Part shown: one piece after another, positions 1-4,663 of the stretch | Layout: the number at the start of each line of letters is the position of its first letter | Numbering within the stretch: position 1 is the stretch's first letter | Notes under the pieces: generated by a model | What the model was told of the DNA's origin: nothing | What the model saw: the letters and a program-made list of their open reading frames with translations, nothing else | The model's database searches: none | Position numbers and translations under genes: made by a program | Assembly: GCA_902594245.1 (NCBI GenBank) | Contig: CACJLM010000005.1 | Location: forward strand, 1 to 36,986 | DNA length: 36,986 nucleotides | DNA from: an uncultured Pelagibacteraceae bacterium | Lineage (GTDB): Bacteria > Pseudomonadota > Alphaproteobacteria > Pelagibacterales > Pelagibacteraceae | Direction: 5' to 3'

Positions 1-1612
1 ATAAAATATTTTCAATATTATTGTCAAATTTTTCAAGGTCAAAGCCAGCTTGTGAAATTTCAGGTAAAAGACCATTAAATAAAAATTGGTAAGGAGTTTT
101 TTCATTTCTTGATGAAATGATTTCTATTGCTTTATTTACAACAAAATTTTTATATTGCTCATTATCAGTAGTTAATTTTTTAGATTTTCCTTTAATACAC
201 CTTATGTAAAAATCAGATGATGAGGTTCCATATGGCATTGCAACTGCAGATTCACCAGATCTTTTATTTTGTTGATGGAGCATTTTCTCAATTTTAAGCC
301 CAGAATTAAAAATACTTTTCAAGAACATATTCCAAATTTCAGGTTTTTTATTATGAAATGTGAATACTATCTTTCCATTATCTTTTAAAACTCTAACTAA
401 ATTTATTAAACCATGCTCAAATCTTTTTTGATATGTTTCTAAATTTACTGTCTTTGTGTTTACAGTTATTTCATTAGAGAAGTCAGGCTCATAAAAATTA
501 TCTATTTTTTTTAACCAATTTAACCACATTAAGCTCAGATCAAAATATTTTACTAGTCCGCCATAAGGAGGATCGGTCATGATAAAATCTACTGATTTAT
601 CTTCTAGATAATCATTAATATTTTGAATATCTATACAACCAAATTTTAATTCAAAATTCTTTTCTTTAGATTTGTTACCTTTATTAAGAAATATTACTTT
701 AATGTCATTTCTTATATATTTTGATGCTTGATTAAGTGAAGATACAACAGATTGTTGTCCTTTTCTAAAACACGAACTTTTAAATACAACAAGTGGGTTG
801 CTATGGAATTGTCGATTTGGATATATATATGCTGACCTACCCCAGCTTGTTGAGTTAGGTCTATTAGCTGGACCTCTTCGAGGTGGTAACATTTTTGTGC
901 AAAGATGTATGGTCTGAATAAATGAACTTAAAAGCTGTATTTTTAAATCAGACTCCTCCTTTTTTTCAATATAATTAAAGATCTTTGCTAACACATATAG
1001 ATTTCTTTTGGGCCAAAGGTTAGAAAAATTATTTCCTCCTAATTTTTCTATAAAATTTTCTGAAAATGACTCAGATTCTGGAAATTTATCATTAGGAATA
1101 AAGTCTGTTATGGAAATATTTTTTTGATCAACAAATAGCTGATCGTCAATACTATCAGGTTTTTTTTCTAAAATTTTTTTTTGACATTTACATATAACCC
1201 TTATCTCATAAATCTTATCATTTTCTATTTTATGGTTATGAGCAATAGCATTCTGATTACATTCGATGCATTTCGTTTTAAAATAATCTTTATAAATTTG
1301 ATCATTTTCTATTAATTTTATTATTTGATTTGCTTCATTGGTAAATTCTTTTTCGTCAAATTTTGAAAGGTAAAATTTTAAAAAAAAAGTACTTAATGGA
1401 TTAAGATCAAATCCTATGGTTTTTCTTCCAGCTCTTAATGACTCTATAATACTCTCACAACTTCCAGAAAATGGATCTAAAAATACTCCTCCATCAGGTG
1501 TATAATTTTTGATATACTCATACCATATATTATGAGGTTTTTTTCCCCAGTATTTCATCGCACTGTAAATCGCTGGTCTAGTATCTTCTGGAAAAGAAAA
1601 ATTTATATCCAT
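1..1612 (-). CDS. Site-specific DNA methyltransferase (N6-adenine/N4-cytosine type), C-terminus runs off the left edge
   Basis: Not in the supplied ORF track because it has no stop inside the window. Hand translation from ATG at 1612..1610: MDINFSFPEDTRPAIYSAMKYWGKKPHNIWYEYIKNYTPDGGVFLDPFSGSCESIIESLRAGRKTIGFDLNPLST... Motif I-like DPFSGS, catalytic DPPY (FIMTDPPYGGLVKYF, about 563-574), and a CxxC...CxC pair (CIEC...CKC). I read the frame without a stop to position 1. Confidence 0.85.
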   Translation of the reverse strand, partial: MDINFSFPEDTRPAIYSAMKYWGKKPHNIWYEYIKNYTPDGGVFLDPFSGSCESIIESLRAGRKTIGFDLNPLSTFFLKFYLSKFDEKEFTNEANQIIKLIENDQIYKDYFKTKCIECNQNAIAHNHKIENDKIYEIRVICKCQKKILEKKPDSIDDQLFVDQKNISITDFIPNDKFPESESFSENFIEKLGGNNFSNLWPKRNLYVLAKIFNYIEKKEESDLKIQLLSSFIQTIHLCTKMLPPRRGPANRPNSTSWGRSAYIYPNRQFHSNPLVVFKSSCFRKGQQSVVSSLNQASKYIRNDIKVIFLNKGNKSKEKNFELKFGCIDIQNINDYLEDKSVDFIMTDPPYGGLVKYFDLSLMWLNWLKKIDNFYEPDFSNEITVNTKTVNLETYQKRFEHGLINLVRVLKDNGKIVFTFHNKKPEIWNMFLKSIFNSGLKIEKMLHQQNKRSGESAVAMPYGTSSSDFYIRCIKGKSKKLTTDNEQYKNFVVNKAIEIISSRNEKTPYQFLFNGLLPEISQAGFDLEKFDNNIENIL

Positions 1613-1616
1613 ATTT

Positions 1617-1642
1617 GAGCAGTACACTGCTGTGTATTGTTT
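1617..1642 (+). repeat. Hairpin overlapping an inverted 12-nt copy of the tRNA-Met anticodon-arm sequence
   Basis: GAGCAGTACACTGCTGTGTATTGTTTTT: stem CAGTACAC/GTGTATTG (one G-T pair), loop TGCT, then T-run. GAGCAGTACACT (1617-1628) is the exact reverse complement of + strand 1788-1799. Confidence 0.6.
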
Positions 1643-1712: not shown

Positions 1713-1782
1713 TATTGTTTAAATTAATATTGATTTAGCTATACTTTTTAACTAATAAATTTGGTTTTAAGAAAATGATAGA

Positions 1783-1821
1783 TTATGAGTGTACTGCTCT
1801 AACCAACTGAGCTACAGGCCC
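1783..1821 (-). pseudogene. tRNA-Met(CAU) 5'-half fragment, truncated at the anticodon loop
   Basis: Reverse complement GGGCCTGTAGCTCAGTTGGTTAGAGCAGTACACTCATAA has acceptor 5' strand, D-arm, anticodon 5' stem GTACA and loop CTCATAA. It continues as TCTATCATTTTC, with no 3' anticodon stem, T-arm or acceptor 3' strand. Confidence 0.8.
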
Positions 1822-1912: not shown

Positions 1913-2746
1913 ATGATTTACTCTTCTTTATTGAAAAACCTATTAGTAAAGTTAGATATTATCGTCTATAAAAAATGGAATAACCAACCATTAATATCTA
2001 AACCAATTGCAAATAAGCAAAAATATTATGACCTATGGAAAGAAGCATCTTTAAAAAATAATCCTGAAGTAACTGAATTCGAAAAAAATACAGGTTATAA
2101 AATTGAAAATGAGTGGTTAAATAATCTAGCTTTAAGAACACAAATTGTAGTTAAAGAAAGTCAACTCAATTATGCTCATGGAAAAGTTCTTTACAGTGCC
2201 CTACGTGAATATATTTCAAAAAATATTTCAAAATTACAAAATGTTACTATATTAGAAACTGGCACAGCTAGAGGATTTTCTAGCTTATGTATGGCAAAAG
2301 CTATGGATGATAGCGATATTTCTGGATCTATTTTAACTTTTGATGTTCTTCCACACAAAAAAAAAATTTTTTGGAACTGTATTACTGATCATACTGATGG
2401 ACCTCTTTCTAGACAGGAACTGTTAGAACCGTGGGATAATTTAGTTGGTAAATACATAATTTTTCACCAAGGTTATTCAATTATAGAATTAAAAAAATTA
2501 GGGCTTAAAAGAATAAATTTTGCATTTTTGGATGGCGCACACACATATAAAGATGTTTTTTTTGAATTTAATATTATTAAAGAATCTCAAAAAAAGGGTG
2601 ATGTTATAGTTTTTGATGATTATAATGAAAAACTTTTTCCAGGTATAGTTAAAGCTGTTAATGAAATTTGTAATAAATTTGGATATCAAAAAAACTTAAT
2701 TAAATCTTTTGATAATAGAAGTTACGTTGTAGCTAAAAAAAATTAA
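1913..2746 (+). CDS. Class I SAM-dependent methyltransferase (Methyltransf_24-like)
   Basis: ORF of 277 aa; SAM-binding-like ILETGTARGFSSLCMAKAM, LTFDVLPHKK and later INFAFLDGAHTYKDVFFEF. Confidence 0.65.
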   Translation: MIYSSLLKNLLVKLDIIVYKKWNNQPLISKPIANKQKYYDLWKEASLKNNPEVTEFEKNTGYKIENEWLNNLALRTQIVVKESQLNYAHGKVLYSALREYISKNISKLQNVTILETGTARGFSSLCMAKAMDDSDISGSILTFDVLPHKKKIFWNCITDHTDGPLSRQELLEPWDNLVGKYIIFHQGYSIIELKKLGLKRINFAFLDGAHTYKDVFFEFNIIKESQKKGDVIVFDDYNEKLFPGIVKAVNEICNKFGYQKNLIKSFDNRSYVVAKKN

Positions 2747-2751
2747 AATAA

Positions 2752-2826
2752 TGGTGGGCCGTGTTGGTTACGCTCCAACTACCCCTGCAATGTCAATGCA
2801 GTACTCTACTATTGAGCTAACGGCCC
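2752..2826 (-). tRNA. tRNA-Val(GAC), CCA encoded
   Basis: Reverse complement GGGCCGTTAGCTCAATAGTAGAGTACTGCATTGACATTGCAGGGGTAGTTGGAGCGTAACCAACACGGCCCACCA folds as a cloverleaf; anticodon loop TTGACAT. Confidence 0.9.
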
Positions 2827-2836
2827 TAATTGATTA

Positions 2837-4663
2837 TTAACTTTCTAAAAAACTCTTTAATTGTTTTGATCTACTAGGATGTTTTAATTTTCTTAAAGCT
2901 TTAGCTTCAATTTGTCTTATTCTTTCTCTTGTTACTGAAAATTGTAATCCAACTTCTTCAAGAGTGTGATCTGTATTCATTCCTACTCCAAATCTCATTC
3001 TTAAAACTCTTTCTTCTCTTGGTGTTAGTGTAGATAATATTTTTGTAGTTGCCTCACCTAAATTAGATTTAATTGCTTGCTCTAAAGGAGCAAGTGCTTT
3101 TGTATCTTCTATAAAATCTCCCAAGCTACTATCTTCTTCATCTCCAACAGGTTTTTCCAATGAAACAGGTTCTTTTGAAATTTTCAGTACTTTTCTTACT
3201 TTATCTAAAGGCATCCTTAGTTTTTTCGATAATTCTTCTGGGGTAGCTTCCCTTCCAAACTCACTAAGAATTAATCTTTGAGTCCTTACAATTTTGTTTA
3301 TTGTTTCTATCATATGTACGGGTATTCTAATTGTTCTAGCCTGATCTGCTATTGATCTTGTAATTGCTTGCCTAATCCACCATGTTGCATATGTTGAAAA
3401 CTTATAACCTCTTCTGTATTCAAATTTATCGACTGCTTTCATTAAACCAATATTACCCTCTTGGATCAAATCTAAGAATTGCAGTCCTCTGTTAGTATAT
3501 TTTTTTGCAATCGAAATAACCAATCTTAAATTAGCTTCAACCATTTCTTTTTTTGCTATTCTAGATTCTTTCTCTCCTTTTTGAACTCTGCTAACTAATT
3601 TTTTAAAATCAGTGACAGACATGCCTAATTTATGACTAATTTCTACTAATCTATCTCTTATGTCTTTAAATTCTTGTTTATGTTTTGAAAAAAACTGTTT
3701 CCATAAAGCGTTGGTATCCAAAAATTTTTTTAAGTTTGGGTTGATTTCATTTCCAATATAAAATTTTATAAATTCAGTTCTAGATATTTTGTTATCTATA
3801 GCTAGTCTTAAAAGATTTCCCTCTAAAGATATAATTTTTTTATTTTCCACATAATGTTTTTGAACTAAATCTTCAAGAACAGAAGGAGATAATTGTAATG
3901 ATTTTATATTTTCTAATATATCATTTACTAATTTATCATAACCTTTTTCTTTAGCTGGTGAAAAAATTTGAGAGTTTAAAACACATTCAAGTTTTTCCCT
4001 CTGATATTTAATCAATTTATTATATTCTTTTGTTAAAATATTAACAGTTTTTAAAACTTTTGGTTTTATTTCAGACTCCATTGCTGCAAGCGTTGGGTTA
4101 AAATCTTCATCTTCGTTATTATTTGCTGCCTCATCTTTCTCAGTCTCACCTGAGTTTTTTTGTTTTGCACTTGGACCGGTAGACTCATCTTCCATATAGT
4201 TAGTATCAATATCTATTATCTCTCTAACTAAGATTTCATCTTTTTGAAGTTTGATGTTCCATTCAAAAAACTGATTAGCTGTGATAGGGCTTTGTGAAAG
4301 TGCAATTAACATAATATCTTTTCCAGCTTCTATTCTTTTTGCTATTGCAATTTCACCCTCTCTTGAAAGGAGTTCTACCCCTCCCATTTCTCTTAAATAC
4401 ATTCTTATTGGGTCATCACTTTTTTCAATTGTTTTGCCTTCTTCTTTAGAAGAACTTTCTTTTTTTCTTAATACTTTGAAATCAGATTTTTTCTCAACTA
4501 ATGTAATTTTTTCATCTAAGATGTGAATAAAAGCTTGGGCTAAATTTTCATCTGAAAGATTTCTCTTCCCAAGAGATTTACTAAGCTCTTCATGAGTGAT
4601 AAAACCTCTGTGGGTTCCTCTGCCCATAAGTCTAGCAAACGATTTTGTAATTATTCTTTCCAC
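2837..4663 (-). CDS. rpoD: RNA polymerase sigma factor RpoD (sigma-70)
   Basis: [11 protein letters not shown] (region 1.2), [59 protein letters not shown], and C-terminal [22 protein letters not shown]. Confidence 0.98.

What the first reader, a model, noticed from the sequence alone, without database searches (positions are those of the whole stretch)
1783..1821. tRNA-Met(CAU) gene severed at the anticodon loop
The minus strand carries 39 nt of a tRNA up to the end of the anticodon loop, then unrelated AT-rich sequence with no 3' half. Tyrosine integrases are known to use tRNA anticodon-loop sublocations as attachment sites, so a clean break here fits an island boundary (attL/attR) or a decayed integration scar. 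If so, the complete or complementary tRNA half may lie beyond the left edge.
Basis: partly seen in the sequence, partly recalled or inferred. Interest (0 to 1): 0.75.

Follow-up and report, generated by a model that had tools for sequence, protein, structure and literature searches.

The report
Left end of integrated tRNA-Ile2 island
The half tRNA gene is the scar left where a small mobile DNA island, here carrying DNA-methyltransferase genes, inserted into an essential tRNA gene of a SAR11-like ocean bacterium and rebuilt that gene at its other end; about two dozen related genomes carry similar islands, nearly all without the enzyme needed to insert them.

Summary
Confirmed and explained. Window 1821-1782 (minus strand) is the first 40 nt of a tRNA(CAU), broken just past the anticodon loop; no 3' half is in the contig. 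It sits at the native tRNA(CAU) locus beside tRNA-Val and rpoD. The intact gene is on another contig of the same genome (C36), followed by the native neighbours mlaC-mlaA and preceded by a second DNA methyltransferase. So 1782 is the left end of an integrated island that brought its own 5' half and promoter.

Relatives show this is a family. At least 25 genomes have the same boundary. All 24 left ends examined carry the repeat TTACCAAC, as a pair 11 bp apart in 23, at one of two fixed distances. Right ends carry it too, and are up to 97-100% identical between species whose rpoD region is about 80-83% identical. Of 17 complete elements, only one encodes an integrase; that one looks like a phage satellite. 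The rest carry cargo such as restriction-modification genes, so integration in trans is likely but unproven.

Correction: acceptor-stem pairs C4-G69 and C5-G68 mark the target as tRNA-Ile2 (lysidine type), not tRNA-Met. Restoring a 5' half is rare (159 of 3919 islands in Islander).

The parts
1782..1821 (-). 5' half of the tRNA-Ile2(CAU) gene, chromosomal side of attL; anticodon loop 1783-1789
   Evidence: Identical to the first 40 nt of the intact gene on C36
1668..1686 (-). Repeat pair TTACCAACTATTTACCAAC, putative arm-type integrase sites, 96 and 107 nt inside the junction
   Evidence: binding function inferred
2..1627 (-). Island cargo: N6/N4 DNA methyltransferase (P0001), cut by the contig end; likely start ATG at 1612
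   Evidence: PF01555 1e-12; PADLOC methyltransferase and PglX models; no other match in 349 genus genomes
1617..1639 (+). Inverted near-copy of the tRNA anticodon arm, role unknown
   Evidence: Only non-tRNA copy in 1.19 Mb of loci; hairpin
1913..2746 (+). SAM-dependent methyltransferase gene (PF13578) between tRNA-Val and the half tRNA; outside this island, in the variable tRNA-Val side interval
   Evidence: the interval varies among relatives
2752..2826 (-). tRNA-Val(GAC), conserved left neighbour of the target
   Evidence: same neighbour in relatives
2837..4663 (-). rpoD (sigma-70), conserved flank
   Evidence: Pfam sigma-70 domains

Best explanation
Position 1782 is the left attachment site (attL) of a small genomic island that a tyrosine integrase inserted into the anticodon loop of the tRNA-Ile2(CAU) gene. 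The chromosome's 5' half stayed beside tRNA-Val. The island brought an equivalent 5' half with its own promoter, so the gene is whole again at the right end (C36), next to mlaC-mlaA. Shown: both boundaries, the empty site in relatives, the conserved repeats with fixed spacing, end sequences shared between species, and stacking of two islands in one genome. Inferred: catalysis by a tyrosine integrase of the G256 type. Less certain (about 0.5): that this island and most relatives lack an integrase and are moved by one acting in trans.
For: Intact gene with native right neighbours on C36. Empty sites, with tRNA-Val about 0.1 kb from the intact tRNA and then mla genes, in relatives. Same severed half in 17 of 399 genus genomes, and the repeat pair in 16 of 398 order genomes with zero control matches. 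All 24 left ends have the repeat 76 or 95-96 nt from the junction. Right-end 112 bp is 97.3% identical between this genome and G214, whose rpoD region is 82.6% identical; G195 and G256 are 100% versus 80%. G256 has two stacked islands, the one next to the intact tRNA with a tyrosine integrase whose R-K-R-H-Y residues are conserved in its relatives. Those relatives sit at tRNA-Thr with the same layout in G175 and G360.
Against: C5 and C36 are not joined by sequence, so the window's island is seen only at its ends and the gap could hold an integrase. The genome is only about 50% complete. No excision or transfer was observed. The repeats as integrase binding sites are inferred from position and spacing. 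C36 shows one exact repeat copy rather than two.
Confidence: 0.88

Rival explanations
1. The integrase-less islands are dead remnants: each once had an integrase, lost it, and no longer moves.
For: 16 of 17 complete elements show no PF00589 match; no movement was observed.
Against: Repeat spacing and end sequences stay intact across divergent species, and right ends of integrase-less islands match other species at 97-100%, which suggests recent movement. No integrase remnant was noticed among the island ORFs, though remnants were not searched for specifically.
Confidence: 0.3
2. Islands spread by homologous recombination between the conserved flanking genes (rpoD side and mla side), not by site-specific recombination.
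For: All occupy one locus with shared flanks.
Against: The rpoD flank is about 20% divergent in the same genome pairs whose ends are near identical; the junction is always at the same nucleotide; in G256 a second island lies inside the gene rebuilt by the first.
Confidence: 0.1
3. The break is an assembly or amplification chimera at 1782.
For: A short inverted copy of the anticodon arm lies at 1617-1639, and amplification chimeras often involve inverted short matches (from memory); the contig ends nearby.
Against: The same junction with the same repeats occurs in about two dozen other genomes; the right boundary is also present on C36.
Confidence: 0.02
4. The gene is split by an intron or is a trans-spliced or permuted tRNA.
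For: The break is at the anticodon loop, a usual intron site in tRNA genes.
Against: No 3' exon in the contig, no Rfam intron match, and an intact gene elsewhere in the same genome.
Confidence: 0.01

Closest known systems
tRNA-targeted genomic islands of tyrosine integrases (Islander set)
   Same: Anticodon-loop site, tRNA fragment at one end, restored tRNA at the other, tandem arrays
   Different: A 5' fragment is displaced (159 of 3919 Islander islands, PMC4383910); most islands here have no integrase, a feature Islander requires
Cis-mobilizable elements (CIMEs) and other integrase-less att-flanked islands (from memory)
   Same: Cargo between attL and attR without an integrase
   Different: Here they form a large family with conserved end geometry at one tRNA, with the likely helper a satellite-like element
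Phage satellites and related marine elements: PICI, PICMI, VEIME, tycheposons
   Same: The G256, G175, G360 and G243 elements are about 8-9 kb with an integrase; G256 and G243 also have PolA-type polymerase and terminase-like genes, and no capsid gene was identified. Tycheposons are marine and are reported at tRNA genes including tRNA-Met(cat) (PMC10872708)
   Different: Integrases were not compared with those of tycheposons; in the integrase-less islands no integrase or packaging gene was found
pTN3-like archaeal integrases
   Different: Archaeal elements; no sequence relation was tested

Membership tests
tRNA-targeted integrative island | tRNA fragment at one end and restored tRNA at the other, in correct order and orientation | tested here: met
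   5' fragment upstream of the intact gene, same orientation, on one contig in 16 relatives; in this genome on two contigs
tRNA-targeted integrative island | Empty site in relatives | tested here: met
   tRNA-Val, intact tRNA(CAU), mla genes with about 0.1 kb between the tRNAs
tRNA-targeted integrative island | Integrase gene inside the island | tested here: inconclusive
   None in the sequenced ends of this island, and no PF00589 match in the held half of the genome; the gap is unsequenced. Not met in 16 of 17 complete elements of relatives
CIME | att ends retained without an integrase | tested here: inconclusive
   Met in 16 complete elements of relatives; the window's own island is not closed
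CIME | Mobilised through a related element | not testable with these tools
   Needs excision or transfer assays
PICI-like phage satellite | Integrase, replication and packaging-redirecting genes without capsid genes | tested here: inconclusive
   The window's sequenced ends carry only methyltransferases and one 113-aa ORF; G256 island 2 does have integrase, PolA and PF03592
Tycheposon | tRNA-associated marine cargo element with the tycheposon recombinase | not tested
   Reference recombinase sequences were not compared
tRNA-Ile2(CAU) | CAU anticodon with C4-G69, C5-G68 and A73 | tested here: met
   Read from the intact gene; rules from PMC12514573 and PMC9976931, established mainly in E. coli

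The most novel reading that the evidence does not exclude
SAR11-like bacteria carry a family of integrase-less cargo and defence islands that parasitise the integrase of phage-satellite-like elements by keeping only its attachment ends, all aimed at one tRNA-Ile2 gene whose promoter and 5' half are replaced at each insertion.
Probability: 0.5. Interest if true: 0.7.

Novelty: new variant of a known kind. Interest (0 to 1): 0.52.

Why it matters
SAR11 bacteria are among the most abundant cells in the ocean and have very small, streamlined genomes, so how they gain defence genes is an open question. A fixed insertion site with readable end signals lets such islands be found in any SAR11 genome or virus sample, and the trans-integrase idea can be tested with short DNA substrates.

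Tried and rejected
Rfam and ARAGORN on the window: only tRNA-Val and tRNA-Gln. Viral-contig scans for the repeat, the tRNA half and the integrase all failed because the search machine gave no answer, so no helper phage could be looked for there. The G256 integrase has no match in the phage collection. A phage search with the right end plus the whole tRNA returned matches to the tRNA part in the rows listed and says nothing about the ends. The small core proteins have no informative family match. A background count of the repeat in islandless loci returned nothing because the script did not find the files, so the reversed-pattern control is used instead. Split tRNA, intron and chimera readings were rejected as stated under rivals.

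Full report
What was claimed and what is there. The finding names a tRNA-Met(CAU) gene cut at the anticodon loop at 1783-1821 (minus strand). The sequence confirms it: 1821-1782 reads as the first 40 nt of a tRNA with anticodon CAU, then unrelated AT-rich DNA. ARAGORN and Rfam list only tRNA-Val and tRNA-Gln in the window, as expected. The window is the whole contig C5 of a 629-kb, 43-contig, about 50% complete genome. The SAR11 assignment is my inference from gene order, composition and genome size; no tool gave a name.

The other end. One intact copy was found in the same genome, on the 2.5-kb contig C36. Its first 40 nt are identical to the window's half. To its right are mlaC and mlaA. To its left are a 113-aa ORF and a second N6/N4 DNA methyltransferase. 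In relatives with no insert the order is rpoD, tRNA-Val, intact tRNA, mla genes. So C5 and C36 hold the two flanks of one site with something inserted between them. The link is inferred; no sequence joins the contigs.

It is a family. The repeat pair TTACCAACTATTTACCAAC (up to one mismatch) was found in 16 of 398 genomes of the order, with no match to the reversed control pattern; the hits lie near the ends of an interval bounded by the half tRNA and the intact tRNA, wherever the contig reaches that far. The severed half itself is in 17 of 399 genus genomes. Together at least 25 genomes carry such an island. Seventeen elements in 16 genomes are complete on one contig, about 1.6 to 19.6 kb; the 19.6-kb one may be two merged. 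In G256 two are stacked: the 5' half brought by the first was itself severed by the second.

Geometry. In all 24 left ends the repeat lies 76 nt (18 cases) or 95-96 nt (6 cases) inside the junction, with its partner 11 bp on in 23 of them; one of the six has a third copy. The two positions differ by about two helical turns. At right ends it lies about 101-124 nt before the tRNA in 18 of 20 cases; two have degenerate copies. The break is always at the same nucleotide. This is what arm-type sites of a tyrosine integrase would look like, with the 7-nt anticodon loop as the crossover region. The binding function is inferred.

Movement between species. In several pairs the 112 bp before the tRNA at the right end are far more alike than the hosts: G195 and G256 100% against 80% in the rpoD region, G000 and G214 97.3% against 82.6%, G067 and G107 98.2% against 82.8%. 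Other pairs show end identity no higher than rpoD, so there are several end types. Island gene content differs from genome to genome.

Integrase. Among complete elements only G256 island 2 has a tyrosine integrase (474 aa; PF00589 3e-7, phrog_216 3e-14), with a PolA-type polymerase and a PF03592 terminase small subunit, and no capsid gene was identified. Relatives of this integrase occur in G243, G175 and G360; in the last two they sit beside tRNA-Thr with the same layout, a 5' half on the left and the intact gene on the right. Arg299, Lys340, Arg417, His439 and Tyr449 are invariant among the four. The other complete islands show no PF00589 match, although the same search recovers the divergent integrases of G256, G175 and, weakly, G243 (it missed G360). 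One genome has a serine recombinase, but on another contig.

Cargo. Islands carry C5 and N6/N4 DNA methyltransferases, Z1-domain, DUF4420 and HATPase genes, proteins scoring to Mokosh and MzaC models, CHAT and PrsW proteins. About nine share small genes related to the 62-, 94- and 148-aa set in various subsets; the 1.6-kb G560 element has only these three. The window's methyltransferase had no other match in 349 genus genomes. Calling this cargo defence rests on family names.

Which tRNA. Three near-complete relatives each have three CAU tRNAs: an initiator type, one with G2-C71 and C3-G70, and this one with C4-G69 and C5-G68. C4:G69 and C5:G68 are the dominant TilS identity pairs in E. coli, and Met identity lists G2-C71 and C3-G70 (PMC12514573, PMC9976931). 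The target is therefore most likely tRNA-Ile2, one copy per genome and needed for AUA codons, which would explain why the insert must rebuild it.

Novelty. Islands leaving a 5' fragment are 159 of 3919 in Islander (PMC4383910), and element-driven expression of the rebuilt tRNA is described as seldom met in bacteria (PMC8371274). Integrase-less att-flanked islands and marine satellites are known kinds. I found no description of this SAR11 tRNA-Ile2 family in the searches of the held library, which lacks most subscription journals, so it may overlap with reported tycheposons or VEIMEs.

Left open. The inverted anticodon-arm copy at 1617-1639 is unexplained. Whether the islands are active, and which integrase moves the window's type, is not shown.

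Noticed in passing
window 1617-1639 (+): Inverted near-copy of the tRNA anticodon arm with its central bases changed, upstream of the methyltransferase; forms a hairpin followed by TTTTT. Unique to this genome among the loci held.
   Followed up: partly
L120:7311-15545 (G175) and L121:6497-14655 (G360): Elements of about 8 kb with a related integrase at tRNA-Thr(TGT), with the same 5'-half arrangement.
   Followed up: partly
G243:C1 about 294893-303000 (L117, L118): Element with much the same gene set as the G256 satellite (integrase, PolA, terminase-like) but no tRNA gene within the 54 kb read; its insertion site was not identified.
   Followed up: partly
L112:12636-13535 (G560): A 1.6-kb element with only three small conserved genes, perhaps the minimal form; the 62-aa protein may be a small DNA-binding protein (by eye).
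   Followed up: partly
tRNA-Val to tRNA-Ile2 interval in L024, L027, L029, L030, L031: Relatives without the half tRNA still hold 2-5 kb of variable genes here, many apparently for sugar or surface biosynthesis (judged by eye).
   Followed up: no
L028:3177-4712: 511-aa protein of the G019 island that resembles a ligand-gated ion channel by eye; no Pfam match.
   Followed up: no
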